Shown here one piece after another: positions 23,285 through 58,000 of a DNA stretch of 64,000 bases. Both the position numbers and the translations under genes were made by a program. The DNA lies in contig JAQGEQ010000043.1 in NCBI GenBank assembly GCA_034620365.1, forward strand, positions 992,001-1,056,000, given 5' to 3'. Below the pieces are notes generated by a model that ran no database searches, had not been told where the DNA came from, and worked only from the letters and a program-made list of their open reading frames with translations. Source of the DNA: Pegea sp. RAD2-039 (lineage: Eukaryota; Chordata; Thaliacea; Salpida; Salpidae). The stretch's first letter is position 1; every line of letters starts with the position of its first letter.

Positions 23285-25187
23285 GAAGAATAACGCTGAA
23301 TTGCTACACAACCAATTTAATAGTGTTTTTATAACCGACAATAGTGACTTTTCTTTCCTACTCCGACATTATCGACAGATCTTGACATAACATTTGATGT
23401 GATAACTAAGGCTATATCTTCTTTAAAATCATCAGTTTCCAACACCCTTGGTTTTTTAAGGAACACTGCTTTCTCTTTATCACTACTTTCTAACATCACT
23501 CTGAGGGCGAGCTTCTCAAATGTAAAAGAAAGCTATCATTATTCCTATTTGTGGTATAGTTGAAATGTATAACAGTAAAGCATTTTGCCGCTGACGTAAA
23601 TGCGTTAAATGTCATTGTCGTATAGATGGTGGCCATTCAGTGATAGGCTTTGTGGTAGATATTAATTTGAATTAATTTGAAAAAAGCCCTATATAAATTT
23701 CATTATCATTACACTATTCCCGAAATTAAACTTAACTACAGACAGTTTTACTAACTTCAGTTATCTGTAGAACTAAAGAACATATCGTTTAAAATCATAT
23801 GACCAGTAATTTAATGAAGTACCATATTATTATATTATCTGATTTCCAGCATGGCTTCGTGAAACGGAGATCTTCTTTAAATCAACATCTCACTTTTCTT
23901 AATGAGCCCATAATGAAAGTAGTACTCCTTGATACATCATATATCTCGATTTTGCAAAGGCGTTTGATTCAGTCCCACACAACAAGCTTATTATTGTTTT
24001 ACAAACATTAATAATCAATAGCTTTATCTTAAAGTGGGTTGAAAATTATTTATCAGGTAGAATCCAACCAACTCGTGTTGAAAGATCTTTATATACTTCT
24101 AGTCAAATCATCAGTGGTGCTCTTCAGGGTTCCATTCTGGGTCCTCTACTCTGTTTAATTTTTATTGACGACCTCATCAGAAGAGTAGCAGTAGACGATC
24201 TCAGTGCGTTTGTGTATTCAGATAATATCAAGTTGTTATCTTACAATGCTTCAAAACTTCAAAACTTCAAATCAGAATCTGAACTAGTAGCTCGGAATCC
24301 AGCCCACAAAGTCTGAACTTATAACTTTCGCCCGTAAACCAGCTGCGAATTTCTTAAACCGATATTCCATCAATGAATTTATTATTCAACGAATATCTTC
24401 GGTCCTATACCTTGGCATTACCCTATCATCTGACTTTAAATGGCACAATTATGTTTCCAAAATCTTTGCAAAATCAATCAACCTTGTCTTATTATAAAGA
24501 CGTTTAGTTATAAGGATCAATACTTTTTTATCAATCTTTTCAAACTGTACGTACGTCCAATTCTTGAACACAATGTCAGTGCATGGATGCCATATCAAGT
24601 TAGTGATATCATAAAAATCAAATCTACTCAGGCAACATTTACAAGATTGGTATGCAGGAAAGTTAATATTAAATACGATAGTTATAAACATCGTCTTAGC
24701 TTCTTTAACTTAGATACTTTGAAAATTCAATGGGTTAAATACGACTTAATTCTTATTTTCAAAATTATTCACAACTTAATTGACCTTAAATTCGATGATT
24801 TCTTTTCCATTGGTCCTTCTTTCAAGTTATATCAACTGAAACGACATACATTACATTTCAATAAGCCCATATCACCTGGAACTTTGTTCAGAGCAAATTT
24901 TTTGTCATACCGCACAATTAGTACATGAAATCAGCTGCTATCAGATATTGCCATGCCAGACTCTCTCGCGTTGTTCAAGCTGAAGTTGAACTGTTTTAAT
25001 ATTGCTTCGTTTATCGTTTTTAAACTGTGATTCGTTTTAAATAACTTTTAAACTGTATAGGAATCACTCAAATGCCAAGTGGCTAATTTTTTTTTCTATT
25101 TGCACTTTTAAATATTTATTTGTGACAATGTGTGCTTATTTCAGGCACCCTTCTTCGCGTTTATTGTAATAAATAAATTACCTATTT
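23285..25187 (+). mobile_element. decayed non-LTR retrotransposon (Jockey/CR1-like LINE), copy 1
   Basis: Broken reverse-transcriptase frames run left to right. There is a linker with AELLHNQFNSVF (about 23298). The RT palm follows, with DFQHGFVKRRS (about 23844), a FDSVPHNKL block (about 23960), and SGALQGSILGPLLCLIF (about 24112). The catalytic box has become VYSDNIKL (about 24212), so the usual FADD-type pair is altered. The C-terminal region ends with the DSLALFKLKL-type segment common to this class. Stops and frameshifts are frequent. A short interspersed repeat (23561-23660) sits inside. The element ends near a TAATAAATAAA run at about 25170. Confidence 0.85.
23561..23660 (+). repeat. 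interspersed ~100-bp repeat, copy b
   Basis: It aligns over its length with 45898-46000 in the same orientation and with 8471-8568 in reverse. It interrupts the reverse-transcriptase frame of the surrounding LINE and so probably inserted after that element. Confidence 0.7.
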
Positions 25188-28100: not shown

Positions 28101-28600
28101 TGTTTACCACTAAAATAAAGTGATGGGATTATTGCCACACACACTGCAGGCGTCTAGTGGTTGTCATGGTACTCACAAATATATGTAATAATTAAATGGT
28201 TAATTTGAAGAATAGATTTGAAGGTTGTGCAAATAAAATATGGAAACCGAAAACTGTACTTTCTGATATTAATTCAATTGAAAAAAAACTATTTTCAAAT
28301 TACATCTAGGCTTTTTGTGACCTTAAAAATAGAAATAGATTAATAAAGAGTAAATGTCAAACTTCTGATTAGTTTCATCGCCTTCAGTTTCTACATTTTC
28401 AATTTTGCATTTTAGAACAAATTTCAGTAAAAAAATTTCAAACAATTAAATATTTGATGTTCATCAATTGCCTCAAGCGTTTCGTGAAAATATTTTTATA
28501 CAATTATCAAATAATAATCTCTTAATTGTGGTGTCCTCAACACTCCCTACCTCGTTTACTGCTATTAACAACCTCTCTCGCCCCACACTACTGAAGACAT
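25190..28600. other. non-coding region, with G+C-richer islands
   Basis: No gene can be supported. Two G+C-richer patches stand out from the background, about 26690-26900 and 27020-27320. The first contains a minus-strand open frame of 65 codons that I do not recognise. They could be exons of an unidentified transcript or conserved regulatory DNA. Confidence 0.4.
28160..28173. promoter_or_regulatory. RFX X-box-like site
   Basis: GTTGTCATGGTACT resembles the imperfect palindrome bound by RFX factors (GTTGCCATGGCAAC-type). It lies about 500 bp from the start of the TGACGTCA cluster. This is a sequence match only. Confidence 0.35.
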
Positions 28601-28721
28601 GTTTGTGCTTAGTCTTCCACTATATTGACCAATGAAGTAAATAGTAGTCGTGACGTCATCAGTAACTTGTTGATGATGTGTGTTAGTAACAATAGCAAAC
28701 ATCTGTGATTAGAGCTCGATT

Positions 28722-28735
28722 ACTACCATGACAAC
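28722..28735 (-). promoter_or_regulatory. RFX X-box-like site
   Basis: The minus strand reads GTTGTCATGGTAGT, close to the RFX X-box. It lies between TGACGTCA sites at 28651 and 28797. Confidence 0.4.
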
Positions 28736-30804
28736 TTCACTTCACATCTCGATACTTATCGTGCGTGATTGACACGATCAGTAGCAAACTGCTGTGTGAC
28801 GTCACAGGAAGGGACCACCCAGCAAGGACGACTGGCCCAGCCCGATATGCATCATTGACAATTTTCGCTATATTGTGGCGCGCATCAAGTTGACGTCACA
28901 GCAGCGCAAAGATTGCACACATTGAAGAAGTGTTTCTTTGTGGATGATCACATACAAAAGAGGCTGAAATTAGATTTATGTCTTGAGATGTGGGAGGGAA
29001 GTAAAAGTTGTGCGTGTGGTCAGATATTCCTCGACCTCCCATGATGGAAACAAATAAGAAAGAAATCGCGTCTGATGACGTCATTGCTCTTTTGTGAAAG
29101 TGTTTAAAAAGTTTCGAAAGTATGAGATAAGAGAGAGGGGGTGGTGACGTCATCACGTATCGATACATGCAAACGATGAAGCATAATCTGATTAAGATGA
29201 AGTGAAGATAATCACAGACGACAGTTGCAGAATGATACTAAATATACTTCACAGTCGGTTACAGCTCAATCTGCCTCAGCATCCTCATCTTTAATCGCCC
29301 ACCTTGTAAGTGAAGTCTGAAAATCGTTTTTTAATTGAATTGCCTACGATTAAATTGCCAATTTCATTTTTTCAGAGTATTTTATCGACAAAAATATATA
29401 GATAATGATAAATATTTATTTTGGTGATAATCTTTGGGTTGCTTTGTAAATAACAATAGTTATAACATAAAAATAAAATTTCACTTTTTATAAAACGCTT
29501 TGTTATAATTTTTTTAAGATTAAATTTTACTAGATTAGTTATTGGACTTCAATCTAACAACAAGACTTTAAATCATACAAAAGTAAATTTAGTCTAAAAT
29601 AGAATGTCTGAGATGACAAATCAATACATTGATCCAAATTGAATGAACAATTCTTTCTGTTAACGCAGTCTTAGTGCAGATCCAAGAAATTGTTCTTAAA
29701 GGCAAAACTGTTGTCTGGTTGTCAGTTCTAGATGGTGTTGGTATTCTGCCTGGTTACATTCAATTCTTAGCTATTAGGTTTAATTTCTATTATAAGGCTG
29801 CCAATAAATAAATTTACGATTTACTTTGAATGAGGGTACAAATAATTATTAAAATGATTAGAGTAAGATTAGGCTGTTTGTTGAAAAGATAACCTTTTCA
29901 AGGTGAAAGTATTTAGAAAACTAGTATGGCATCAAATTTGATTGTAATTTTGTTTACTCCATATACACCATAGATTAACACTAGGAGTAACGCTTCAAGT
30001 TTCCTCGTCTAAAGAACATAATTAAAAGGCTCAAATTAAACACTTTGTAGAGTATAAACCAACAATAAAAACTACATCACACTAAAAATGAGGTTATTTA
30101 AGATAGAAATAATACAAGCAACAACTAAACAGCTTTCTCTAAAAGTTGCAAAAAGATAAATCTTCAAATAAAGAAACATCAATCAAAAGATAAACAGATA
30201 TCAAGAAGTTAATCTAATCTTTTAATCCTTTTTCAAATATTTAGTTGATCAATGATAGCTTCATTTTAACTTCTTAAAAACCTTGGTAACTAAACTTTTG
30301 AAGTCCGAGGGGCCAATAGTGAGGACAGGCTGGTTTGGTAAATTCATCACCTATAAGTTGGTTAAAAGAATTTCTAACAACTAATCGATGATGAAAAAAA
30401 TATGAAATTCTTCAAAACATTTTCTTCATTTGAATCAAGCTGCATACCACAATGACGTCATCGATTACATGTTTAATTGTCGATTGCACAAAACGCAAAT
30501 GGCTTTCACAGATTTTGATTCATTAGAAAAGCTCGAAGTTGCTCACGTTAAATTGTTGGTGAAAATTGATCAATAAAAATGATCTTAGAAGAACTTTAAC
30601 CGCAAGATGACGTCATATATGACGTCAAACCTCATTATGACACACGGAATGAAATCGCTGTCTGATGACGTCACTGTCGGGTTATTTCTTTTCTGTGCCG
30701 GTCATTTGTGATAGTTGCTGCTTTTTAAAGAGGTCCAGATAAATGTTATCTAAGACAAATACGCGATCGAAAAAGGAGTTACGTCATCAGTAATCATTGT
30801 TGTG

Positions 30805-30819
30805 GTTGCTAATGACAAC
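30805..30819. promoter_or_regulatory. RFX X-box-like site
   Basis: GTTGCTAATGACAAC forms two half-sites in X-box arrangement, about 20 bp to the right of the near-CRE TTACGTCATC. Confidence 0.35.
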
Positions 30820-31109
30820 TATGACAACGCAAACTGGTTTGGTATCAGAAATTGGTTTCACTTCATCGATCACAGATGCACCTTTTAATGTGTTTTTGTT
30901 TCTATTAGAAAAGATGTACGGCTGTTACCATGAAAACTGTATGACAGCCTGGCGGCATTTGATGATGTCGCGTTGCAAGCGCCCGCTTGAGTAAAGTAGA
31001 ATGGAACACTTTCTATTTTCGATGACGTCACGGTAAATGGCGACGACAGTGTTTTTCAACACTTATACTGCAACACAACATATGTTTACGTGTAAATTCA
31101 CGCTTATCT

Positions 31110-31123
31110 GTCACCATAGCAAC
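31110..31123 (-). promoter_or_regulatory. RFX X-box-like site
   Basis: The minus strand reads GTTGCTATGGTGAC. It lies about 80 bp beyond the last TGACGTCA of the dense cluster. Confidence 0.4.
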
Positions 31124-31130
31124 CACATGG

Positions 31131-34100
31131 ATTTCGCTAATCTAAAGTTAGATATTGAATACCTCCTGTAAAGGCTTATCGTTGTTTAAGCAAGAAAGTT
31201 GTTTTTCGAATTTCAAAAATTTCACCAGTTTAGTTTTTTTATTTATTTGTATAAGAATTTTAAAGAACGTCTCTTTAACAGCCGCAATATTTATAGGATC
31301 GATAAAAGAATTTAATCAGATAAGTAATTCTAGTATCATTGTTGCAATAGAGTGACCACAAATTACTTTGCCTATTAGTTATGATAGTTGTCAAAATAGT
31401 TAAGCTCTTAACACGCTAAAATAGATTAGTGTTGATTTAAATAGTTCAGTTGTTAATAGTGAAAGTTTAAACAGGCATGAATAAAAAAAGAATTCTAATC
31501 TTATCATAAAAATGTTATCTTCATCAAAAGTCCGTTCAAATCTTACAATTTTGTTACTGTATAAAGTAAAGTATTTTTTTGATGATTGGCAGAATAATAT
31601 TTCAGTTTTTAAAAACTTATTGTAGCTGAAGTCAAAATATCTGAAGTATTTTAGGTATTTGATAAAGAATAAATAAATTAAACATTTTTATTATAGTAGT
31701 CAATCGTCATGATCGAATAATTGTGATAAAGTAATTATATGTTTACGCTGTTTAGAAATTGCTTAAACAGACAGAATAGTTTTTATCTGAGTAAAAAATA
31801 CTTGAAGATTTCAATTTCAGATATAAGCTGATATAAAATATATGCTTTAATTAATTCATAGAGCATGAAATAACTGTACTATAGCTAAATCAATTTGATA
31901 ATATAATAATGTTTAAGATTTACTTTTTAACAAATTATAAATAATATAAAAGTTTTTTATAAAAAAGTAATACAAAAATTGTTTATACTAATTACTGTAA
32001 TTAGAGTAAATAAAGTTAAAGCTAAATTCTAAGTATTCATAACTTCAAGCATAAGTTGAAACTAGGAACTTTGAAATAGTATTTTAAGAAATGAATTAAA
32101 TCGTAAAACGTTTGCAAGTAATTTAAAACTTTGTAAATAATTTGTTATAGGCCATCATTGAATAACTTATCCAGTAAAAACAAAGATGAAACTAAACAAT
32201 ACCGAAATTTAGTAATTAAGAAATAACCTTAATTTTCCTTCTAGTGATTAAAGTCAAAAGTTTAGTAAAATTGTTCATCCAATTATCAATAATATATTTT
32301 GGTTAATATTTGCTATTTGAAAATCTAAAAAAGTTGTCAGCGATTGTTCAAGCATATTTTCCAATCTATAAATTTTCTATACTAAATATATCTGTACAAA
32401 AGATGAGACGGAAAACAAAACAGTTAAGTATTGAATGACATAAGAATTAAATTCATTTTTTCAGGTGTAGGAAATTGTTTTTGGTGAAGATAAACCTTAT
32501 TTTGTAAACTGGATTTGTCTGGTGTATTGACGGTTTTTATATCTTTAAGATTTCAAACAATTTTTAAAATGTAAATTAAAATGAATTCTCCACAATTGGT
32601 TTTTCATTCTCATGTGTTTAACTGAAGTTAAAGTAAATATCATGAAACAGTAAAATAAGTTTTTCCACTTTAAAAAAGCCAAGGTTATATAAATAAAATA
32701 GTCTGTAAAATTAAAATACATGTTTAACATGAGGTCTTAATAATTTTTAAAATATAAAACAAATAAATACAAGACTGGTAACTATGATTAATCGACCCAA
32801 AATAATCTTCTTCTTGTTTCAACTGAGAGAAAAAACACGTGATAAACTGAAGGAGGGAGCACAATTACCTTCTTACAAATATATCCGATTGATAATACAA
32901 CAAAAACAAATTAGTCGAGGCAATCAATATGTTTCTTGACTATACAAGTCAATCGAAGCATAACGTCACTGTTGTCACGGCAACGAACATGCTGAGTAAT
33001 CCGATTATAAGCATAAAATAATTTTCATGATAAGTTTCAAAGTAAGAAGCTTCATCGGCGAGTTTTTAGTAAAATAGAAATTTATTGATAAGAGTTGAGT
33101 ACATTTGAAGTAGATTTAGCTGGAAGTAACAATATTTTGCTCGTTATCCTCTAAATTACTTCATGCAAACACTATATCAATCACTAAGATATGTGATTGA
33201 CAGTCAACAAACAGTTTTAATGCACAAGTAAGTAACTACACAGGCTTCCTTCAAATTACTTTCCTTACTGCAGTATTTTGGTTTCAATCCAAGTTTGACA
33301 AAAGTTAAATGATAAACTTGTTTTATGGTTCAAAGCTAAAAATAATCTTTTTGAAATTGACAACTTTTTTAGAGAGTTACGTACAATAAATATTATGACC
33401 AAAATTCGTAAATTTTTTTATGATTGCTTGCTGTAATTGAAAACAAAATGTTTTTGAATAAGATTAATTATTAAATCTTTTTTTAAGACTTAGGTATAAA
33501 GATTAATTTTCTAGAAGTCAATCAACAGTTTTGTGATGAAACTATAAAATAAAATCGGAATTGTTTTATATAAAATGAAAAAAATAATAAAAAGATTCCC
33601 TTATATAAAAAACTTGTCTGTTTATTTTGTCTGAAAAGCTTATTTTAAATTTAAAGTATTTATCGAAGTTTTTCCAATTCTTATTCTGTCATTTGTTGAT
33701 CACCAAAATTAAATTCTAATAATTCGTTTTTTTAACAATCTGATTATTTCTGTTGATCATTAAGAATCAAGTGAGTGATAAATTAACAACAAGCTAACTA
33801 ATCGCACAAAACGATCAAAGCAACAAGAAGTGAGATTCGATTGAAGCAACTTTTTGACTCACAACAACAAGAATGTTTGAATGATAATACAAGTAGAAAC
33901 TTACTTGTTTTCAGCCGGACCACCAACTTACATGGAGTGCAATTAATTTTTTGGCTTCTCACTCTTATCACGTGTCTGAGCGAAAGTTTGATAGATAAGC
34001 GTTAAAGAAACAGTAATAACATCACACGAAACTAAAACTTTGCTTTTTTTCTTGATATGGAACAAACAACAAAAACACAAACCTCTAAAACCAATTAGTA

Positions 34101-37100
34101 GTTTCAATTTCTATTTATTTTTCAGCATTGTTACCAACACTTAAAATCATGTCTGTATATTCAACCTGACTCACCACAATTCCTCTACAATCGTTCTGCC
34201 CCACTAAGCAACCGATCGTGGTATTAAGGACAATATTTTATAGTTTGTCGATCGGAACATTTTCACAAATTTTTCTAGAAGTATCGTTAGTAAGTTTTGA
34301 ATTTTTTCTTTCTAATAACTTTCTAAGTCTATTGAATCTGCTTGTCATTGTTTAATCTTTTCCTGCGTCGTAACTATCCTAGCGTGACGAGAGAAAAGAT
34401 AAGTTCAAACTATCTGCCCCTCTTTTATGTCTCAATCTATTCTTCCTTCTCTTTTCACCTTTGTGTTGTTGCCATGTCGACAGCTTTATGCTTGACTGAA
34501 TGTATACGTTGGCATGACAATGACAACCGTTTCCTAAAAGCCATCTCATTCCGCTCATCCAAACTTGATCCGTATCACGTGACTCACACATAGCAGATTG
34601 GAAACAGTTTGTTTTTGGATTTAGGAAACTTGTAAGATTTCCGGCAAAGACCACCCGCGTTTTTACAGCTTTTCTATGCTCGCTGTCTCTTCTACTTTCT
34701 GATTTCTCCATTTTTTGAATCAACTTGATTGTTAAGATAACAGTTGAGTTCTTTGTCTTCTACAAGTCAAGAATCGAAGTGAAATGATCTCCTGACAACC
34801 AGGCCACCTTTGCGAAAATTAAAATCAACTTTTCAGTCTGAAGTGTGATGAAAATTATTTTGAGCGATGCAAGTTAAATAAAGTATTAAAAGTTAGAAGA
34901 TAAAATTTATCATCAAATATGATTTTCAAAACTTTGTATTGTTTATTACAGCTTCGCCAACTTTACTCTTTGCAGCTGATTATTTTTTTTCAGTTTTAAT
35001 ATTTATAAAAAATGGTTCGTACCTGGCCGAACTGAATGTTTTGTAAGCATATGATCGGGCTACTATAAAGAGACCTAAAGCTTGAAGCTTATGTTATTGG
35101 CCTATAAGATTTTACTGGTCAAGGTGCTAAATTGCTTTTTATTTATTCTTTCTTATAAGTTTTATCAACCAGAAATAAAACCTAGGTTCCCGATCTCACA
35201 TCCACAAATTATTGATTTAAAAGAAAAATAGACACGCTTATCAAATTAAACTATCTACTAGTCTTTAATTTTCACATTACATATTTAATTTGTATCGAAA
35301 ATTGAAAGTTAGTGTAGTTTGTTTTCTACTGATTGCGTTTGATTTTATTAAGAAGAACAAATAAATGAAAAGACTCAAGTAAAATTGAAAAGCAATTTCC
35401 CGTCAGATATAATCGAATAAAATTGACGGAAACTGATTTAGTCATGGTTGAATGAGCTTCTGCAAAGCTGAATACAATTGCAAAGTGATATTAGAGCAAA
35501 CCTCGATTAGTTTGAAGAAGTGTCTTTGATTTATGAACGCAGATTGACGTATAATCATTTTAATTAGATCAGTTGTAAAAAAGATTAGCTTCACAAAAAA
35601 GACTGTCTTGCCGGAATTTACCACAAACATGTTTGTATCAAATGCTAGATAATACAAGTAAAATAGAAATTTAAAAAAAAAACTCTTTCTTCTCACTATA
35701 AAATTACCTCCGTTGTTACAAAAAGTTTTTGATAATTTCTTTCAATATTAGAAGCATATAATACTTGTATTAATTGGTATTTAGTATTTTCATTTAATCT
35801 TGATGATGCAGTGTAATCCAACTCTCTTGTGAAGATTGCTGAAATAATGAAATTAACATTTTGGTGGAAGTTGAAAAAAGATTTGACGGATTTATTTAAA
35901 TAGCTTTTTAAATGCGTCAAATTTCATAGAGATTATTTATTCTGTTGTAGTTTCAAAGTGGTTTCAGTAAATATTTCGAATGCATTTAACTTCAAGTTTT
36001 TCAACTTAACTATCTTAATTTTTCATAAAAGTTTTCAGAACTCTTAGTTAGTTTTTAAAATATAATTAAAATTTTCATATTTTCAATTCTTTGACCAGAT
36101 TGCAAAAAGACCAGCTTTCCGCCTCGACTCTCGACTAAATATATTTTCCTATATGATTGTTTACATAGCAGTTTGCTTAATTTTCTGTTTCTTGTGTTTT
36201 TTATCTCCTTTATTTTCGTTTCACTTCTAAACTCGACATAGTGAATAAGCTTGATGTCCTACTTTTATGCTTGACTTAATATATAAAGTAAAAATTTGTT
36301 AAGGGATTGATAACTATCCAAAAAAAGGTCTTCTTACCGACTACTACAGAAATCACCTTTTAATTTCATTTAAGAATTGTTTTGACACTAACAAGCGACC
36401 ACAAATGATAATTTTAATCTTATTTTATTCCAATCTGTTGCCGCGCCATTTTCTCCACGATTTATAGCAGCGAGAAAGTGCGGCAGTGAAAAAAAGTTGT
36501 CATAGGAACAAATTAAACTTAAGTTAATAACTTACTGATATTTAAACGTAATCGCACAAAACAAGAAAATGCACTGAACATGATTCTTTGGTTTTTTGAT
36601 TTGGCGAACAAAAGTGATCACTTTACTAAAACTACCAGGGAAACCACCTCATTGTAAATTTGGTGTGATAGTCGATTGCATATTGCTGCCATTCATAAGT
36701 AGTTGAAATATGGCGGGTATACATGCGTCACAATGCTTTCGTAAAACTCGCTTGTGTGATGTAAAGAAAGAAACAAGCAAAAATGAGAACGCAAATAAAA
36801 GTAAACTAATTAAAATTCGCTAAATATAAAAGAAAATACAAAAAAAGCGGACAATAAACAGATTCGAATTTCAGTCTACTGACACGAGGCTCAATTGGAG
36901 GCCATTAATGACAAGTTTACGAAAAGTAGAAGGCTTGCCAAAAAAACAAATAAACAAATAGATAATTAATAAAAATACTAATTTAATAATGATTTGATGC
37001 AAAACAAATTCATGGAAACTGTTTCTTGGTAAGACACCTTTTAATGAATCTATCATCTGCTCTTGAAAGATAAAATCGAAGTTCAATTTCTTCCATGAAT

Positions 37101-37115
37101 ATCAGATGAAGATGA
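31131..37115. other. non-coding region on the 3' side of the DMRT gene
   Basis: No coding exon can be supported over about 6 kb. Small G+C-richer islands occur near 32780-33010, 34130-34700 and 36420-36760. E-boxes (CACGTG) lie at about 32836, 33968 and 34575, and further X-box-like sites at 34468-34481 (GTTGCCATGTCGAC) and 36496-36509 (GTTGTCATAGGAAC). The 114-codon frame at 34379-34723 (-) has no recognisable family and is not called. Confidence 0.45.
32961..32984 (-). promoter_or_regulatory. composite X-box plus CRE-like element
   Basis: On the minus strand, GTTGCCGTGACAAC (X-box-like, 32984-32971) is followed two bases later by TGACGTTA (32968-32961), one base from a perfect CRE. RFX and CREB/ATF sites are known to pair with this spacing in the X1-X2 module of vertebrate MHC class II promoters. 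Here it lies in non-coding DNA between the CRE cluster and the DMRT gene. Confidence 0.45.
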
Positions 37116-40100
37116 TCATGGTTTTGTTGATAATCCGTTTGAAGCTACATGACTCGCGTCATCTACTGCGTATCCATTTAATGGAAGGCCACGGGCAGAT
37201 AGAAATCGCCGCATGACGTCATCCATTGAGTAGTTTGCTGACGTCACATTTGGAAGAAACGTAGGAAGAGTAAGATGATGAAATGGGAGGTTGTGATTGG
37301 GAGTTACTGGAAAAGAAGAAAAGTTTTGCTGAAACCTTCTCCACAGATTATGTGGACTCTGAAATCCAACTGGAGTTGTACGAATAGCAAGAGGATGAGA
37401 TCTAGAGTGAAGATGCAGAGGCTGATGAGGTCGGAAAGAAGAATGATGCAAAAAAGGATTGAATGAAGTTGAAACTTGAGAAAAATTTTGCTGATTTTCA
37501 CTTGATGAACTAGATTCCGGGACTGACAAAGCTGATGATGACGTCATGGCCGCTTGATAATGTTCGAAAGTGATTGGATCTGATTGTGAGTTTCTGATAT
37601 TGAAATTGCTGATTGTAGGTGACGTGTTAATTGTTGCGCTTGTCGTTCGACTTCTCATCTTCACTTCTTCTGTTTCTAAATCTGATTTTTCAGGTTTAAA
37701 TAAACTCAGTTAAATTTATCGAGGTTTATTTACTTGGTTCAATCTTTGGAAGCTTTTCGAGGTTAGATTTGTGGATGTAAGATTCTGATGAAGATCGGAA
37801 TTGTTTAAAGACTTCTGAGCTTGGAGAAGATGTTTCAACTTGCTCTCTACTTGAATTTGCTGTTCTTTCTCGAGCATCTAATATCTGTGGAAAAGTTGAA
37901 AATGTTGTTTTATTTGGAACTTTTTAACTAACGGTTTCTGTTTTTCATTTAAACAATTTCTGTTTTTATGAAAATTCTCTTTTTCATTTCAAATTTTATC
38001 TGTTAACTGAGTTCATTTTCTTCCTACAATTTTTAGAGTAATCAAAAACTAAGTTATCAATGTCAAGAGATGATACAACATTCTGTTTTCCACTGTTCAA
38101 ATAAATTGTTACCAAAAAAGATTAATTGAATAACATTAAGACCAATTTTGTTCACTAATTGAAAACAAGTTCAGTGTTCTTGCTTTGAAAGCCGCATAAA
38201 TTAGTTTGTTTATAGTGATTAGTTGAATTTTTAAGCCTTCAGTTTTATATTTAATCTAAAACTTTCTTAACTGAAAACATGACAATGTAAAAAGCAATTC
38301 GAATACACATACATATTCAAAAAACTTTAAAAGATTTTAATTGATGTAGAGCAAACATTTTTTAGTTATTTCTAGACATTGAAATAATCTTGAATTAAAA
38401 CTGAAGTTCAGTTGATTTGAAAAACCGATTTTATTTTCAATCATTTCGATTGAGATATTATTATAAGTCAGCTGTGATCAGTTATCAGTTAAGATTTTAT
38501 TTACATAAGATAACAGATCTATAGTCTCCTACTTTAATAAATTTAAATAATTTTCTGTTAAGTAAAACTTACTTTAGTACAATTAATGGTTTAATTCTAA
38601 ATATTCAATAATTTGAGAGCAAAATAGTTATTTAGTATTGAGTAATTCAGCTAAATCATGTAGAGTCACTGTAAAGGAACTTTTGAGCCAACGACATATT
38701 TTCAAGTAAAATGACTCTGAATCAAATTAAATGATTTATCTTTCATCAAAGTATTATATTTTTAGCATTGTGCCTGTATTAAATTGTAAGCAGAATATTA
38801 ATCTTTCTTTTGGTTTTTAGCAGATATCTTAGTCTGTATTCCAGTTTGAAAAATTCCATGTTTTTATCGACTCAATTCTTTTGTAAAACTTTAAAAGTTA
38901 TTTTTTATCAATTTAAAATCCTATTTAATAATTTTAGCTGAATACAGTTGAACTGATTGCTAATTAAATATTTTGCTTGATCATACTTTCAAACTCACCA
39001 ATCAAGGAATAAGAACAAAAGAATCACTAAAACGAAACATTTTCTACAAAATCTCACGTGACTGAAATACTTCTATTAGTCTAAGTGCCCCTTGGTGGCT
39101 GTTTTTCTCAATCTTATCCTTGCAAAAATGTTTACCAAAATATTTAAACGTTTAAAAATAAACAAACCATTTGGATTGCAACCATCACTTTGCCACCTGC
39201 ATCACTTAAGATCTTCATCAACTTCTCTTCTTTTTCTTCTTTCCCGAAAATTCTCGTTAACATTTTTATCCCGTTGCTTCAAATAGAGAAGTTTTATAAA
39301 AGAGGTTTTAAGAAGATTTTTAGATCTTACCGGAAATTGTCTTCATTTTTTGATGTCATCAACGAAGCGTTGGTGATGTCATTGGTCCTTGGACTTGATC
39401 CTTTGGAGCTTGAACTTCTCTCCCCATCACGAAGACCATCACTCGGAGAACATCTCAGATTGGTAACCTCTGGTGACGTCATCACCCCTTCATTAGAGGC
39501 AATTCCAGGCGAGTTGCTGCCACTAGTCGGGGACAACAAGTGAGCTGAAATAAACAAAACCACTTTCCTAAAAACGCCATTTTGTAACATTTTGTTTGTT
39601 TTTAGCTTATCTACGATTTCAAATGATGCATATTTGTCGCAAGTGTCTCATTTTGATCAAGAAACAATTTCATGAATCTTGATGTCTCGATAATCACTTC
39701 TGGATGTAAGAGTTTGGGGGAAATAAATAATTCATTCCTTTATCTGATTATTTTGAAACAAATGAAAGTACTTGTTGCCATGATAACAAACTAGCCCACC
39801 TAAACGCTAATCTGTGTTTTGTAGCAGTTCTATTTTCAGATTTCAGCACCGGAAACAAGAGTTTACGAGTGTTTGGCGCGATACCTTCAACTCACTAACT
39901 AAAATATAATCAAATCATAATCTCGAAATCAACATTAAGGAGCTTATTTGACTGGCCTTAATAAAAAAACGAAATAAAGGCTTAGATTTGAAGTACACGA
40001 AGTAGATGTTAAAGATTAGTATGAAAATTAAAAGATTGGGCGAAAGTGATTTGTTGTCTCCTCCATTTTCTTGAAATGTAAAGAAAATGGTAGTAAAAGG

Positions 40101-40816
40101 AATTTCGCTCAATTTGCAGAAAGATAATTAATTACACGAACCGTTTACATCAGTCGGACTTCCCACTCTTTTATCTGATCGGATTCGTTTTATTGGAGGT
40201 GCTAAAGATGTCGATGATGCAACTATTCCTGCATCAGTGTATTGTAGATGTGAAGCAGATGAAAATGATGCTGAAGACATGAATCCGTTATTTGCGTAGA
40301 TCAAGTTCATGCTTCGTTTTTCATTTTCTTCTTGAGCTTGTTGACGGCGCAATGCCACCTGTATGAAAAGTTGCTACATTGATCATGATGTCATCAACAG
40401 ATCTGAGACTAGGTGTTGAAGCTTCTGTCGGTTTTTATTTATTACATTTTATTTTTTATCTGAACTTTTTTAATCACAAAAGTATTTTCTCATAAAGTAT
40501 TTTGGTGAGTTACCTGAGCGGCCATTACTCGCTGTCTTTCTGCTATCAATGAGCAATTAGCACAATCGCAATCTTTCCATCTACAGTATCGTTTGTGTCC
40601 TTTCAACAGACTAACTACTCCATGGTTACGACAACGAGCACATTTCGGTGCTCGAACATATCGCTCAGCCCTTCGCGTGACAACTGTCGCTCCTACATGC
40701 TGATTCTGCAGCTGTGCTTGTATTAAGTGTTGTTGCTGCTGTTGTTGTCCTGTTGTTATTGAAATTGTTGCATTGCCTGGTATCAATGAAGAAGTAAAAA
40801 CCGGACGCTGATTCAT
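37116..40816 (-). CDS. DM-domain transcription factor (DMRT, DMRTA-like)
   Basis: Six exons, read downward: 40816-40514, 40358-40142, 39544-39331, 39276-39168, 37884-37734 and 37681-37116. Phases agree, giving about 519 residues. The DM domain is at residues about 55-101. Its zinc-binding pattern is Cys59, Cys62, His66, His74, Cys78, Cys83, Cys85 and Cys88, within [20 protein letters not shown] and [20 protein letters not shown]. The [12 protein letters not shown] extension follows in exon 2, as in DMRTA/DMRT3-type proteins. Exon 4 plus the start of exon 5 ([20 protein letters not shown], then [12 protein letters not shown]) resembles a diverged DMA domain. The rest is Ser/Pro/His-rich. DMRT proteins are DNA-binding regulators of sexual and neural differentiation. 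A polyglutamine run lies near residue 24. Two donors (40141 GTTCGT and 39167 GTTTGT) are non-consensus. Exons 5-6 are predicted by phase and openness, not homology. Confidence 0.88.
37214..37246. promoter_or_regulatory. two TGACGTCA palindromes inside DMRT last exon
   Basis: Exact octamers at 37214-37221 and 37239-37246 lie in coding sequence. They encode parts of DDVM and VTSA. They may be regulatory sites overlapping codons. Confidence 0.4.
37539..37546. promoter_or_regulatory. TGACGTCA palindrome inside DMRT last exon
   Basis: An exact octamer within GATGATGACGTCATGG. The coding strand reads Met-Thr-Ser here. Confidence 0.4.
39474..39481. promoter_or_regulatory. TGACGTCA palindrome inside DMRT exon 3
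   Basis: An exact octamer within GGTGACGTCATCACC. The coding strand again reads Met-Thr-Ser. Near-CRE forms (ATGACATCA) lie about 100 bp away in the same exon. Confidence 0.4.
39774..39787 (+). promoter_or_regulatory. RFX X-box-like site in DMRT intron 2
   Basis: GTTGCCATGATAAC, close to the RFX consensus palindrome, lies in the second intron of the DMRT gene. Confidence 0.4.
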
Positions 40817-42820
40817 ATCTATACTTGTTTAATTATTCGATAAAAACATCATGAGTACAGCTGCAAAGGGTAAGAAATCAGAAAAATAAGACTCAATCTA
40901 AAACTGTTGAAAGACTGAAGCAAGAAACAAAGTTTTAAGCTTCCAAACACTGTTTGAAAGACCACACAAGATTTCAGACTGCTTTCAACTATTTCGACTT
41001 TCACTCATCTCAACCTCACAAGATTCAACCTCTACTTCTTCTCATTTCTCTCTCATTTCTGATCTTCTCAACTCTCTCATTTGGCCGGTTTCTTTTTACC
41101 AGTAATCTATTTGTTTTTATTTCTGATTTTTCGCTGTCTTAAATCTAATCTTAAATGAAAAGACTTGAATGTTTGAATCTGCGATTTAGCTTGTACCATT
41201 GCAAGAAAATTTTATTTAAAAGTTCTCAAAATTATATTTTCATACAATTTAATAATCTGAATCTTTTCAGCACCTTCAAAGCTTAATTTGAAATTAATGT
41301 AGAATTAGCTTGATATGATTAAGATAACCAAACTGTTCTAATAAGAAATCCTAACAATGTTTTGTGACACTTTGTAATTCAACACAAGATGAAAAATGAA
41401 TTTTTGTCATACATTTAAATTAAAAATCGTTAAATAATCTTCGAATATTGCATCGACTTGTACTAAGCTGTATTAAACATTTTGCTTCACACTTGATTCA
41501 CAAAACCTATGTATTCAGAAGAATCTCATAAGTAAACAAGGTATTGCATTACGACTCTTATAAAGTAAAGCTTGACTTATATAATTAGGGATTTAATTGG
41601 AATTCGTTGACACTGGTATGTGATTTCATTTATAGCGTAGAGTAAAAATTTGCTGCTTCAATGCAATCTATAGAAAATTTATTTTCAAGACCTCTTACCG
41701 ACATTAAAATTTTTCAACAAATTAACTCTAATCCTTTTATTCCAATGAGTTTGTAAGTATTGAATAAATCTAAATGTAAACAACCAGTTTTGGGTTTGAA
41801 GTCTAAACAAAAACAAATTGAAAAAGTATATAATGATGACGACTTAATAAGTATTTTTAGTCAAGCATAAAACCTGTATATATGACGTGTAAGCTTTGAA
41901 TATCGTATCAGCTGCTGGACGTGACGTAACAAAAGAGAAAATTTCGACCACCAAAGATGCCTCAACCTTAGACGTCAAAATTCGACACTTTTTATAATTT
42001 GAACGCCCTCAATATCATATGTGAATGTGTGACGTCATCATAAGTGAGTTAAAGCAGAATGAGTGTAAAATAAATGATATCCAGTTTGTAATCTTCAGAT
42101 GAACAGTTATGGTTTCCATTGAATCTTAGCGAAAATTGTTTTCTATTTTAATCTAAAAATCCTTTTCATTTCTGTTTTATGCTTCACTGGCTGAAGCTGG
42201 CTTGAGAAGATTAAAAGTATTTTAGATTGATTTTACACCATTTAGTGGCAAAAAAGGTTTTTGTTAGGCTGGAAACTAGTAATCGTACAGTTTGTGTTAG
42301 TCATCTAGTAATAGCATTTAAAGAATTCAATGTTTTAATGAGATTTTTAGACGTTTTACAGCTGATGGTGAATGTAGCAAGATGATTACTGTAAGTTGAT
42401 TTTATCTGCCACTGAAACTACCAAATTCAGCTTTTTGAAACCTTATATTGATTTCAAAGTAAACTGAAACTCAGTTAATGGTGATAGAACTATCAAAAAT
42501 TTATTTATTTTAACCTTACTCAGCAGTACTGAATAAGTTTAAGTCCATTACCTAATTCATTACTTAATTCAAAGCAATCTAATTTTTAAACATGTTTAGG
42601 TTTAGTTTCTATAGAAGTAGAAATTAATTCATAACTTAATTAGACAAATTTAGAAATCGAATCCATCTCAACGGTGAATAGCCATCAATTTTATTGCATT
42701 GATCATGGTAATGGTTGAATAGTTATGGCAAGGTATTAAAACTTTACACTAAATTTGCAAAATTAAATCTTGTAAAAGAGTTTATGTAAGAAAATAACCA
42801 AAATTATATTTGCTGCCAGA
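40817..42820. other. upstream flank of the DMRT gene
   Basis: Presumed promoter side of the DMRT gene. It holds one exact TGACGTCA (42030-42037) and partial forms (ACGTCAAA near 41973, TGACGTAA near 41922, TGACGTGT near 41883). I see no coding exon. Confidence 0.5.
42030..42037. promoter_or_regulatory. TGACGTCA palindrome upstream of DMRT
   Basis: Exact CRE octamer within GTGACGTCATCA, about 1.2 kb upstream of the DMRT start codon. It is the rightmost copy in the window. Confidence 0.45.
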
Positions 42821-52037: not shown

Positions 52038-55000
52038 TTACAAATTAGTTGAGATGTCTGTATGCGATTGATAACTCGGGTTGATTTTTCCGTTTTTCTC
52101 TCCATTTGAATCATTGATTTCATCTTCAATAACAAATTCTTTCACGTTTCCAACTTGTTGCTTCGTTTCAAAAAGATCAGATCTTCCATGATCATCTGAT
52201 GTATAACTTGGAGGTTTTTCACTTGAAACATTTTCTTTCATTTGCATCAGATTGGATTGATGAGTTGATGAAGATTTACGTGAAGGAAATAACTTTCTAA
52301 GTAGCTCTTGACAAGGCCACTCAATAAGCAGAGCAACAACAAAAGCCCAACAAAAACTGATGATCACGTGACCTGTATAACAATTTAATTGTAAATTTAT
52401 GGTTCAATTTATTTTCATTTACTTATCTATAAAATCAAAAGTACTCGACAAATACTTCTAAAGATGTTTACAAAAAATTTTGACTCAAAACGAATGCTTT
52501 TATCTGTTCAAAAAAGTTCACTAATAAAACTTCTGCTATTAACAATTCTTTTTATAAAGTAAAGACGCATAATTCGATCTAATTTATAGGTGAAAAATAT
52601 AAATTTCTATATTCCGATGTATAGATTATACATCATAGTTATAGTTATAGATTATTCATTTTGGTTTTTCTTACAATTTTTTGAAATAAATTAATTAGTT
52701 TCAACTAATTACAAGTTTCAACTTATTTAAACAGAAAAACCATTATTTGTGGTTTTAAGATTATTTCTCTATAATTAAAATTTGGCTAAAAAGTTTTTTA
52801 AAACTTGTTATTGAATATTAATAAAAATAAGGAAAAAAAATATATACAAAACTAAATACTAAAAGCTTAGATATTTAAGCGAATAGTGATAATTTCAAAA
52901 AACAGTTCTCGGATTAAAATTCTGCTATCAGTTATTCTTTGAATTTTTGTTGTACAATATTTTGAAAATCTTAATAAAGTTATTATCTCAAATGCAACCA
53001 CAGTTTTTCAATTAAACAAATTTAAAATGGTTATCAAGTACAGAGTTTCAACAAAAACATCATACCTAGATTGTACGTGTATCAAACTAATAACTGCTTT
53101 AAATTTTCACTTTTCAATTCATAGAAACCAATATTAATTACCTGAAAATGAATATGCCACCCAAAGAGGAGAATAGTGATTGTAATATTCCTGAGTTCCA
53201 GTGTGCCAATAGAGTACGTATAAATGGACCAAGTAAGCAGCATAAGTGAGACGACTAAGCGGTAGAAACAGTTTCCAGTTGAGAAACTTCGTCACTGGAC
53301 CTTTATAACAAATTAATTTCTAATTTTTTAATAATCCTATTTTCTTCTATTTCTCATAAGAAGTCTTTACTTTTTTAATTTATAAGAAATCAAGAATTTA
53401 AGACAGCCGTCAGATAAATCTAAAGATGTACATTAAGCTATGAATTTGAATTAAAGTTTGAATTCTACAAACCTCCATACCCACAAGTACAAGCAACTAT
53501 CACCCATGAGATACAAAGTCCCCATAAAGGACGTGAAACTGCGTTGTAAAAAGCAGCTACATCTACATCAAGTGGTTCAGGAACACTTGTGGATCCATAA
53601 ATACCATAAACAATACTCAAAGCTGTTCCGGTTGCAACGAGCCATCCAGTAATTACACCAATCTAAATAAGCAAAATCTTAAGGAGATTTACTGATTAAA
53701 ACTAGCAAAAAGGTAACAATTATATATTTTATCATGTATATTTATTGCAGTCGGTATAATTTGGAATCAGCATATACTTGAAGAACATTTTGAAAAATCT
53801 GTAAATTATATTAGATTTTTATTGTTAAAATTTTTTTTAATGTTTCCATTTAATTCTGAAACTGCAGAGTTTGATTAAACTTGCTTTTAATAAAGCTTCT
53901 TAACTACTAAGGTAATAATTTTTATAACAACAAAACTAGATACTACTAACATATATGTAAACTTACTTTTGGTATTTTGATCTTAAGTTTAGTTTTAAAG
54001 AGAATATATCCAGTAAGCATACCAATAAGATAAACGTTTATTCTACACCATGGTGTAAAATACAGATCAGATTTAAACTTTTCTTGAAATGTTTTAGTAG
54101 TATTTAGATATTGTGGAGGAATTAGCCTTCCCAGTCTGTATATAAATGTAAGTTATTGAAGTAAAAATCTTTCTAATCTTAAACATTCATCAACGATTAA
54201 TCATTTATTTTATTATATATATTCTTAAATAACTTACACAGAATACCATATAGCACTGTTTAGTACTACAGGTTGTTGTTGAGACCAATCTGACAACCAC
54301 CATGTCACTCCAATACTTGCCAATGCAAACCCAATAGTTTGGCTAACTCCTAGCCAAGGTATTCTGTTAAAATTGAAAAATATGAAGTTTGTATTTCAAT
54401 AAATACCATCAGCATTATTTATGGATTTATTAAATTTGACATTTTTTGCGTGTTATTTGCTATCTACCTCTAGCTATTAAATTTACAAGTTTACCAAGGA
54501 AAAGGGTTTTGAAAGATTCAATGTTTAATAAATTTAAACAATCCTTATTCTTTAATTAAAAATTAAAAGCACGGACTTTGCTCAAACAGAAACTTGTTAA
54601 TGATAAATAAACAATTTAGTTTTACATTTAGTTTTAAAACAAAATGTAAATTACACAAGCTTATGAGATAGTTACTTACTTGTACATAGTATAAACAAAC
54701 AAAGGAGATAGAAGATAGAATTGCATGTCACATGCCAAATACCATGCATGTATAAAACACTTCAAAATTAAGAACAGAGTTAGCTGTAGATTACTTTGAT
54801 TGCTCAATGAACTTACAAAGTTTTTTTCTGGATAAAGATTATTGATATAAAGTAAGTTTGTCCACCAATAATTATCACAATCTTGTTTAGCAACTTCAAA
54901 TGTAGACTTCCATATCGGACCAGATCCAAGAAATTTGTATATTCCCATAGTAAATAACAACACATATGCATAGAGTGGTGTTAATCTGTTCAATAGAGAA

Positions 55001-58000
55001 AATAATTAAATAATTCGTTCATTGTTTTATCGGTTTAAAAGTTTAAGCTGCTGAGAGCTTCATCTCTTGATAAATTGAACAAATATACATTGCAATTATT
55101 GAACAGTAGCTATTTTAAGTAAAACAAAACCAGCACTTAAAGGAATTAAAAATTTTACAACTAAAGATTAAATTATTTAACTTAAAGTTAACTTGCAAAT
55201 ACAAATAATGCTACGCACCTTAAATATCTTTGTAAATACATCAAAGGTATATTCATTTTGCCTTTAGTTTTTTTCAACGTCTTAAGTGTCAGATAAGACG
55301 TCAGTAAGCCACCAATACAAAAGAATGTGTCAACAGAAAAGGTTCCGTTCAAAATTGCCAACATTTCAAACCTTCTACGGAGGTCCTGACCCATTGCAAT
55401 CATGTTATCTAAAATGTGGGTTTAAGTATCAGATATAATTAATCACAAACTATGTCAGAATGGACTAGTATTATATAAGTAATTAAATAGTTTTTAAATT
55501 ATAGGCTTCTTCGAGTACTATCTTAACTTTAGCTTAGCACCATTTTAGTTCTGTGTTTATAAGATACTATTTTTAAACATATTATTTAATATCTACAAAT
55601 TCTTTACCCATATAAGACGCAATTATTGCCAATGTGTGTCCAAGTATAACCCATGAGGTACTAATAGTTCGGATTCCATTTATTGCAGAAATATTACCAG
55701 GTGATTGCTTGGTGCTTAAAATCTTCTTTGCATTACTTTTAATGGAAAAACATAAGAGCCATTCACCTTCGAATTTATAATGAATTTAAAATATTTTAAG
55801 CAAAATTTCACATTATTAAAACATGAAGTTTCACTATTCAATGATGAAGCTTAAACAATAATATTTTTATCTTTTAGGAAGCAATGCGAAAAGCTTTGAG
55901 GTTTCTTAAAGCAAAATCAACTAATTATATAATAATAATAGGGGCCTGCTCCGGCCGAGAACGGCCATGTGGGATAAGTTTTGAATTATGATATCAAAAT
56001 TAAAACAAAACGCAGAGAAAATAATGGAGCAACACACAGTGAAATGGAATAGAAAAAAGTGTTTTATTTTATTTAAAGCTGTCTTTTCTATCCTTTTGCT
56101 TGTCTATCTATTTGTTTGCAGAAAAGAGAATACCATTCGAAGGGATTTGCTGAGACATTCTCCCAATCGCTAGTACTGATGTTGGGAAATTTCATATCGC
56201 TCTTGCAAGTATTTTTAAAGCGAACGATTGATAATGCCTTTTGATAGCTCCTAGCAAATAGACGTGTCCGAGCCGGCAAAGCCTTTACTTAGCATGTTGT
56301 ATATTGTTATCAGACCAGTGCATTTTAAGACTTCCTTGTTTTGAGATCTTTCGCTGCCACGTTAAACGTAATATGCGACGAAAGCAAGGGAAATAAAAGC
56401 TGTTGAGTTTATTTTCGCTAGCCTTCGACAAAATCCAAATTTCACTGGCGTACATTAGTGTACTGCAGACAAAAGCTCTCTAGATGGCAGCCTTGATCAT
56501 CCCAGACCCTGGAAGTGAACCATGCAAATGTACGAGATGCTTCGTCGATGCAACTGTTGATAGCGGCTTCGATAGATGCTGATGATATCATTTTTGAGCC
56601 AAGATTGACACATTAATCTATAGCCTCAAGGACTCAGCCATTGATATTGATTGGTAGTGGATCGTTAACACCTTAGATGATAAATTTTGTCTTTTTGCGC
56701 TGATTTTCATTCCGAAGTCTCTGCAGGGTGATGAAAGTTGGTTTATCAGCATCTGCAGGTCTTTTGCTGAATGTGCAACAATTGCTTCGTAATCAGCGAA
56801 AAGAAGGTCGCGGATGTAGATCTTTTATACCTAGCTTTTTGCCTTTAAACGTGCTTAGTGAAAAAACCTTCCATCAGATCTTCCTTCATCAAAATAGATT
56901 CCTTCAGAAGACACATGAAACGATTGTCTTAGTAAAATTGAGAATAAAATCCCAAATAGCATAAGGATAAGGATACTCTCCTTTTTACTCCATTTTTGAT
57001 TGTAAATTGCACACAGTAGCTTCCATCATACTTGCCTTAGTATTCGTATGAAATGGTTTCACCATACTAAGTAGGTAACATTCTTTAACAATATCGAGAA
57101 CAGAGCTTCCCTACTGACGAGGTCGAAAGCTGTAGTTAGGTCAATGAATGCGGTATACAAAAGCCATACAGAAAAAAAACTAGTCTGTGGTAAAGCGTTC
57201 GGATCTGAAACCACGTTGTAACTTGATACCCTTTCACCAATATTTGTGAGAGGGAAAGTAGCGAGTTCCTTGCCTGTAGTGGTAAGCAAGAATATTCCGC
57301 TGTGATTGTTGAAACCTGACACCACTGTTTTTGTACAATGTTATGATCTTTGTCTCGCGTATGTCTTCTAGAATCTGTCCTTTTCTCCAACATTTGATTA
57401 AAACATCGTGGAGAAGGGTAAAAGGACAAGTTTTACATTGTTTCAGTAGGTCAAGTGGTATATCGTCGCTACCTAATGCTTTTCCAAAACCCATTGCTGA
57501 AATGGCTTTGCTGAGTTCTTCTCTTTGGAGAGGAGAATCGAAAAATGTTCACTCACCTCTTATATTATTAATATTAATATATATTAATAAATATATTAGT
57601 CTATCTTATATATAATTAAATATTAATTAAATTGTAACAATTTAATTAATTATAATTATCTAATAGTTCAACTGCTTATATTCATCATAATTTAATCTAT
57701 CTCAACTGATCAATCAATTTTTTAGAGTAGTAAGGAAATTGTACAATTTTGGTGGATGCGTAACAACATCTGCTAGTAGCAGTAGAGTTCTTAGCTTCAT
57801 ATACAAACAAACGAAAGAATTGTGACTAAAACAAGCTACGTTTTCCTCAGTGCAACTGATTAGACTGGCTAAGGTATTAAAGTAAATCAACATTCGTTCT
57901 ACTGAAATTTATACCTTTCCTATTTATAGTGTTCGTCAAGTTAAAGTATTTCTTAATACATTTAGACAAACAGACAGTCATAAACACTATAATCAAACAT

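What the first reader, a model, noticed from the sequence alone, without database searches (positions are those of the whole stretch)
28651..42037. Fifteen exact TGACGTCA palindromes confined to a 13-kb block around a DMRT gene
Exact octamers start at 28651, 28797, 28891, 29076, 29145, 30453, 30608, 30620, 30666, 31023, 37214, 37239, 37539, 39474 and 42030. I find none elsewhere in the 64 kb. At roughly 28-30% G+C, simple arithmetic expects less than one per window. Ten lie within 2.4 kb and many share the longer GATGACGTCATC core. Homotypic clustering on this scale suggests a cAMP/stress-responsive or ATF/JDP2-type enhancer controlling the DMRT gene, or an unusual chromatin-boundary or silencing element.
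Basis: partly seen in the sequence, partly recalled or inferred. Interest (0 to 1): 0.82.

Follow-up and report, generated by a model that had tools for sequence, protein, structure and literature searches.

The report
Genome-wide CRE palindromes in animal genes
The cluster is real but not special to this gene: the same eight-letter word, the docking site of CREB/ATF-type gene switches, occurs nearly 28,000 times in this small animal genome, far above chance, bunched in and around CpG-rich genes.

Summary
The 28.5-31.2-kb block is single copy, not a multiplied transposon.

The real finding is genome-wide. TGACGTCA is the most over-represented octamer in 264 kb around the window (36 places, 1.3 expected). 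The 12-mer GATGACGTCATC occurs 3,824 times (control 4). The E-box palindrome TCACGTGA is in excess (4,614; control 237), but the hybrid TGACGTGA is not (1,573; control 2,261): symmetry that points to dimeric DNA-binding proteins. Sites cluster in CpG-rich DNA, in introns, coding exons and intergenic islands, and favour short-intron genes (4 of 5 against 3 of 26). CpG-decayed copies are fewer than intact ones.

Best reading: CREB/ATF-type bZIP sites kept at extraordinary density (about 80 times human) as a general chromatin or regulatory code. Taxon unresolved; binding untested.

The parts
28651..29152 (.). non-coding CpG-rich island with 5 TGACGTCA (28651, 28797, 28891, 29076, 29145)
   Evidence: no gene predicted between 23496 and 37116 by the in-house gene finder
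30453..31030 (.). second non-coding island with 5 TGACGTCA (30453, 30608, 30620, 30666, 31023)
   Evidence: window 28501-31200 has no other long copy in the genome
37116..40816 (-). predicted DMRT gene, 6 coding exons (40514-40816, 40136-40358, 39331-39544, 39168-39276, 37734-37884, 37116-37681), ATG to stop
   Evidence: gene model; DM domain Pfam PF00751 E 6e-24; no transcript evidence
37214..37246 (.). two TGACGTCA inside the last DMRT coding exon (read as DDV and VTS)
37539..37546 (.). TGACGTCA inside the last DMRT coding exon (read as MTS)
39474..39481 (.). TGACGTCA inside a middle DMRT coding exon (read as MTS)
42030..42037 (.). TGACGTCA 1.2 kb upstream of the predicted DMRT start codon

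Best explanation
The 15 octamers are a local sample of a genome-wide iterated DNA element: the full palindromic cAMP-response element (CRE), the site of CREB/ATF-type bZIP dimers. Shown: 27,792 copies; dependence on two-fold symmetry; preferred GA..TC flanks; concentration in CpG-rich DNA and in short-intron genes, across introns, coding exons and intergenic islands; clustering at gene scale, and at about 250-kb scale in the one stretch listed. Inferred: an abundant CREB/ATF-type bZIP factor binds many of these redundant sites, keeps the genes in open, probably unmethylated chromatin and helps their transcription. A second, bHLH-Zip-type factor on TCACGTGA does the same at fewer sites. Sites accumulate wherever sequence is free to vary (short introns, weakly constrained coding linkers, intergenic islands) because placement is loose while density is selected. 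The DMRT locus is one member among many.
For: Counts. Of the NNACGTNN words only the palindromes TGACGTCA (36 vs 1.3) and TCACGTGA (13 vs 1.4) stand far out; AP-1 TGACTCA is not enriched, 24 vs 32 (264 kb). Flanks: T or C first (88 of 100), C second (44 of 100) in 50 sites, and 3,824 12-mers. GC 0.40-0.41 within 200 bp of 36 sites, 0.31 at 1-1.5 kb, region mean 0.286. Sites in exons as well as introns argue for action on DNA. Of 66 short introns of compact genes 11 hold the octamer (0.42 expected on shuffling) at 3-37 bases from the 5' splice site, so at no fixed place. CpG-decay product TGATGTCA 11,070 genome-wide, about 6,800 above a scaled trinucleotide expectation, against about 27,300 excess intact copies: maintained, renewed or young. 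A CREB orthologue is present.
Against: No binding, accessibility, methylation or expression data. Density in coding exons and gene bodies is unusual for transcription-factor sites known to me. One-mismatch neighbours in the islands are only 2.5-fold over expectation (35 vs 14.0), a sharper cut-off than expected if weak sites also worked. The bZIP set looks ordinary (12 exon-level matches to PF00170, a lower bound). No related genome could be compared, so selection is not demonstrated. CpG-rich surroundings could be cause or consequence. Three of 26 longer-intron genes carry sites too, the DMRT gene among them.
Confidence: 0.5

Rival explanations
1. Animal 'highly iterated palindrome': a repair, conversion or replication bias writes and rewrites TGACGTCA, with no regulatory selection; sites pile up where that process is active (CpG-rich compact genes).
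For: One exact palindrome dominates and the hybrid is not enriched; near-miss words other than the CpG transition are few; sites lie in coding, intron and intergenic DNA; resembles HIP1 of cyanobacteria, for which a mismatch-repair writing model is proposed (PMC4390886, abstract and passages).
Against: The flank preference GA..TC and the co-enriched E-box palindrome fit two known dimeric TF classes (recalled). No methyltransferase or nuclease recognising TGACGTCA was looked for.
Confidence: 0.15
2. Meiotic recombination hotspots of the fission-yeast M26 type: a CREB/ATF-type dimer on ATGACGT opens chromatin for Spo11, and GC-biased conversion makes the surrounding DNA GC- and CpG-rich.
For: The M26 heptamer ATGACGT bound by Atf1-Pcr1 (PMC9775316, passages) is part of the commonest form here; GC peak of some hundred bp around sites; domain-scale clustering on C1 at 1.99-2.24 Mb.
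Against: Hotspot alleles are normally converted away (recalled), yet the motif accumulates. The GC-rich first 1.6 kb of the adenylate-cyclase gene has no site, so GC is partly a gene-level property. In fission yeast a full TGACGTCA in ade6 was not bound by Atf1-Pcr1 and did not promote recombination.
Confidence: 0.12
3. One reading: a homotypic CRE enhancer or boundary devoted to the DMRT gene.
For: Two non-coding islands with 10 sites 6-8.5 kb downstream of the DMRT stop codon; the densest block of the 264 kb read.
Against: Genome-wide density; comparable clusters elsewhere; 4 of 15 sites are coding.
Confidence: 0.1
4. Splicing or intron element (RNA level), for example an enhancer of 50-bp intron removal.
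For: 11 of 66 short introns in compact genes hold it; about 2.8-fold denser in introns than exons of those genes (22 per 11.7 kb vs 12 per 17.7 kb).
Against: Variable position in the intron; sites in exons and intergenic DNA; splice donors around 50 sites show no bias towards the site (GTRAGT 3 toward, 5 away; GTRAG 7 and 11; GTNAGT 11 and 8); the palindrome requirement has no evident reason at RNA level. The genome-wide orientation test did not complete.
Confidence: 0.05
5. Copies left by one multiplied transposon or satellite.
For: Copy number alone.
Against: The 2.7-kb block has only two other matches, of 112 and 99 bases, that cover no octamer (the tool skips simple repeats and very common words). 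50 distinct contexts share little beyond 2-3 flanking bases. The 100 listed of 548 TGACGTCATAAA places are scattered over C1-C14.
Confidence: 0.02

Closest known systems
CRE / CREB-ATF bZIP sites of mammalian promoters
   Same: Identical octamer TGACGTCA; CpG-rich context; palindromic dimer site; CREB orthologue present in this genome.
   Different: In human 7% lie in promoters (-1000 to 500) and 7% in CpG islands; here they run through gene bodies and clusters. Whether the human ETS-CRE pairing exists here was not resolved (CCGGAAGT 0 vs 0.97 expected in 264 kb).
HIP1 (GCGATCGC) of cyanobacteria
   Same: One exact palindromic octamer iterated far above chance through a genome (PMC4390886, abstract and passages).
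   Different: Animal genome; the word is a known bZIP site; a second palindrome is co-enriched; HIP1 goes with methyltransferases, which were not searched for here.
M26 meiotic hotspots of Schizosaccharomyces pombe (Atf1-Pcr1, ATGACGT)
   Same: Same core, same protein family, intragenic position (PMC9775316, passages).
   Different: No recombination data here; the motif accumulates; the full palindrome in ade6 is not a hotspot.
Loop-anchor motifs of ctenophores and placozoans
   Same: Thousands of copies of one word in a compact animal genome at promoters and enhancers (PMC12221973, passages).
   Different: That paper's main text has no TGACGTCA, CREB or bZIP; the ctenophore motif is GC-rich and read by zinc-finger proteins, the placozoan one lies in Mutator terminal repeats.

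Membership tests
CRE-type (CREB/ATF) bZIP binding sites | exact TGACGTCA palindrome with dimer symmetry (both half-sites TGAC) | tested here: met
   27,792 palindromes; hybrid TGACGTGA 1,573 vs control 2,261
CRE-type (CREB/ATF) bZIP binding sites | flank preference R..Y, as in (R)TGACGTCA(Y) (consensus recalled) | tested here: met
   88 of 100 half-flanks are T or C 3' of the octamer; 3,824 GATGACGTCATC
CRE-type (CREB/ATF) bZIP binding sites | a CREB/ATF protein in the genome | tested here: met
   CREB bZIP matches CREB chains 5zko and 1dh3; 12 bZIP matches
CRE-type (CREB/ATF) bZIP binding sites | occupancy in vivo or in vitro | not testable with these tools
   no ChIP, DAP-seq or ATAC data
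locus-specific homotypic enhancer | local enrichment over the genome background | tested here: not met
   window 15 vs genome mean 16.8 per 64 kb; denser than its own 200-kb flanks, 21 sites
multiplied transposon | copies share flanking sequence | tested here: not met
M26-type recombination hotspot | elevated double-strand breaks at sites | not testable with these tools
   no recombination data
HIP-like repair-written palindrome | enrichment independent of function, also in constrained coding sequence | tested here: inconclusive
   sites in exons (12 in 17.7 kb) but about 2.8-fold sparser than in introns of the same genes

The most novel reading that the evidence does not exclude
An animal genome carries a highly iterated palindrome: TGACGTCA (with TCACGTGA) spreads and is kept at about 28,000 places by a process acting on DNA itself, either bZIP-directed meiotic conversion of the M26 kind or a repair bias. 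It sets CpG-rich, short-intron, palindrome-bearing genes and domains apart from AT-rich, long-intron, palindrome-poor ones, with transcription-factor use being secondary.
Probability: 0.2. Interest if true: 0.85.

Novelty: new variant of a known kind. Interest (0 to 1): 0.6.

Why it matters
If the sites are bound, this would be the densest use of one palindromic transcription-factor site that I know of in an animal. It would be a natural experiment on how redundant sites relate to intron length, CpG content and chromatin domains. If they are not bound, it is a eukaryotic counterpart of cyanobacterial HIP1. Either way, the counts and controls make the question testable with one ATAC-seq or DAP-seq experiment and one related genome.

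Tried and rejected
Satellite explanation of the count: the 100 listed of 548 places of a rare-flank sample (TGACGTCATAAA) are scattered over C1-C14, not in one array. Composition artefact: 36 places vs 0.26-0.49 expected from the composition of the octamer's own islands. First gene-finder settings over-predicted and were dropped; stricter penalties with strand competition were used. The 70-bp cut between compact and longer-intron genes was chosen after seeing the data, and median intron length is a gradient rather than two clean classes. L001 and L002 (overlapping parts of one CAMSAP gene) and L035 (formin) were fetched because they hold sites; L001/L002 are left out of the 4-of-5 vs 3-of-26 comparison and L035 was never in it, but all three are in the exon/intron densities, where the L001/L002 overlap counts some bases twice. 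In one search I counted 9 intronic sites in the formin gene; one search shows 8 (plus 1 at the gene end), so the 2.8-fold figure is recomputed by hand. The local splice-donor test showed no bias, against an intron-only reading. Taxon: no COX1 match in the assembly; the 18S search did not complete; a kinase frame matched deoxycytidine kinases best, not decisive. A DMA-like motif in the DMRT protein is by eye only; Pfam gave DM alone. Rfam found nothing in the window. Literature: seen as listings with abstract starts, listed no report of such a genome-wide TGACGTCA excess in an animal; some searches were topic searches; PMC5349851 was seen as passages. Subscription papers are not covered.
Full report
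OBSERVATION. The 15 exact TGACGTCA are present at every stated coordinate and nowhere else in the window; shuffles give 0.38 on average. The window is 28.9% G+C (from the base counts). None of the 15 has GATGACGTCATC in full; 11 of 15 have GA before or TC after the octamer (read).

THE LOCAL CLAIM FAILS. The window is bases 992001-1056000 of contig C30 of a 105,744,746-base assembly in 387 contigs; that genome has 27,792 TGACGTCA against 969 for the reversed word. That is one per 3.8 kb, so a 64-kb stretch should hold 16.8; this one holds 15. Density is uneven: the first 100 sites on C1 span 1.56 Mb; the 264 kb around the window hold 36, of which 21 lie in the 200 kb outside it. Of eight arbitrarily placed loci (34 kb), three hold 6 sites in all and five none. 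Bunching is general: in the C1 list 23 of 99 gaps are 200 bases or less (uniform 1.3), and in the 264 kb 13 of 35 (uniform 0.9).

THE WORD ITSELF. In 264 kb the octamer ranks first of all 8-mers: 36 places, 1.3 expected from trinucleotides. Of the NNACGTNN words only TGACGTCA and TCACGTGA are far in excess. Genome-wide: TCACGTGA 4,614 (control 237); the hybrid TGACGTGA 796+777 (control 1,158+1,103); GATGACGTCATC 3,824 (control 4). So an exact two-fold palindrome is favoured, as for homodimer-type protein sites; AP-1 TGACTCA is not enriched in the 264 kb. Of 100 half-flanks in 50 non-redundant sites, 62 are T and 26 C next to the octamer, and 44 have C at the second place. The CpG-transition product TGATGTCA has 5,503+5,567 places (control 1,373+1,300). 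Scaling the 264-kb trinucleotide expectation (10.7) by hand gives about 4,300, so about 6,800 excess decayed copies stand against about 27,300 excess intact ones. The intact sites are therefore kept, renewed or young; mutation rates here are unknown. In islands (44.3 kb around 64 sites, some loci chosen for having sites) all one-mismatch neighbours are 35 vs 14.0 expected, 15 vs 2.9 for TGATGTCA.

WHERE IT SITS. Sites avoid AT-rich DNA: the 69 one-kb bins below 25% G+C have none, the 8 bins at 40% or more have 10 of 36. G+C is 0.40-0.41 within 200 bases of a site, 0.34 at 400-600 and 0.31 at 1-1.5 kb; CpG falls from about 0.04 to 0.019 per base. A small gene finder written here (octamer masked from scoring; reproduces my hand reading of the MFAP1 gene) was run on 264 kb plus ten single loci. 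Of predicted genes with three or more introns, leaving out the two CAMSAP loci fetched because they hold sites, 4 of 5 with median intron of 70 bp or less carry the octamer, against 3 of 26 with longer introns (Fisher p 0.005, cut chosen afterwards). These five have G+C 0.31-0.42, with CpG o/e 0.83-1.18 in the four with sites and 0.48 in the one without. The four are MFAP1, dyskerin, a two-domain adenylate cyclase and a B4GALT-type transferase by Pfam (names of the last two partly by eye); the fifth is a cyclin by eye. A CAMSAP gene and a formin gene, found through their sites, look alike. In the MFAP1 gene 3 of 8 introns hold TGACGTCA and 3 others TCACGTGA. In compact genes plus the formin, 11 of 66 introns of 100 bp or less hold the octamer, 0.42 expected on shuffling, at 3-37 bases from the donor. 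Coding exons carry it too: 12 sites in 17.7 kb against 22 in 11.7 kb of intron. Exonic copies include one in dyskerin and four in the DMRT gene. Around 50 sites splice donors show no orientation bias, so introns are a favoured place in some genes, not the rule.

THE WINDOW. The DMRT gene (37116-40816, minus strand, DM domain E 6e-24) has four octamers in predicted coding exons; one lies 1.2 kb upstream; ten lie in two non-coding islands 6-8.5 kb downstream. Apart from itself the 2.7-kb island block has only two matches, of 112 and 99 bases at 73-75% identity, and these cover no octamer.

DOMAINS. The first 100 rows for GATGACGTCATC are 58 places on C1 up to 2.96 Mb. Of these 33 lie in 1.99-2.24 Mb (132 per Mb; genome mean 36). 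Merging copies within 5 kb leaves 33 clusters, 17 of them in one 250-kb span, above all 2,000 uniform simulations (maximum 12). The E-box also rises there (72 vs 27-32 per Mb), the hybrid does not (12 vs 8-14). No other part of the genome could be examined this way.

MECHANISM. The symmetry, the flanks and a CREB orthologue with a CREB1-like basic region make CREB/ATF-type bZIP binding the best reading. A solved CREB chain is 1dh3; that it is a CRE complex is recalled. Twelve bZIP matches, with Jun and a CREB3-like protein among them by eye, look ordinary. That binding keeps these genes open and expressed is inference. Site redundancy would explain why position is loose. The sharp exact-word excess, the coding copies and the CpG-rich, short-intron context leave room for a writing process, either repair-based as proposed for HIP1 or meiotic as at M26, though in fission yeast a full CRE in ade6 was neither bound nor active.

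COMPARISON. Human has 10,355-10,389 and mouse 14,297 TGACGTCA (PMC3464117 tables, passages). With a human genome of about 3.1 Gb (recalled), this animal is roughly 80 times denser. The searches made (listings) showed no such case in an animal.

LIMITS. No relatives, no functional data, taxon unknown, gene models unsupported by transcripts. 

Noticed in passing
C1:1990000-2240000 of the own genome: A block about 250 kb wide with 132 GATGACGTCATC per Mb (genome mean 36) and raised TCACGTGA: a possible chromatin or recombination domain.
   Followed up: partly
own genome: TCACGTGA, an E-box palindrome, occurs 4,614 times (control 237); in the sample it is denser in compact genes (6 in 24 kb) than in longer-intron genes (6 in 114 kb).
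   Followed up: partly
window 52038-63713 and C30:1056349-1063576: Repeated, inverted copies (by eye) of acyltransferase-like genes on either side of the window end; one exon matches Acyl_transf_3 weakly, below its cut-off.
   Followed up: no
window 23933-24316, 24440-24928 (+) and 57234-57548 (-): Non-LTR reverse-transcriptase fragments; the first matches RVT_1, the others by eye.
   Followed up: no
window 30924-30932 and 31114-31124: GTTACCATG and CCATAGCAACC, RFX-like half-sites by eye, in and next to the second island; TAGCAACC was over-represented in islands (5 vs 0.4).
   Followed up: no
C30:989715-990764 and window 1694-2899: Two neighbouring Arf/Arl-type GTPase genes on the same strand (the first by eye).
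   Followed up: no
264 kb around the window: Predicted genes range from CpG-rich ones with about 50-bp introns to AT-rich ones with introns of 100-360 bp.
   Followed up: partly
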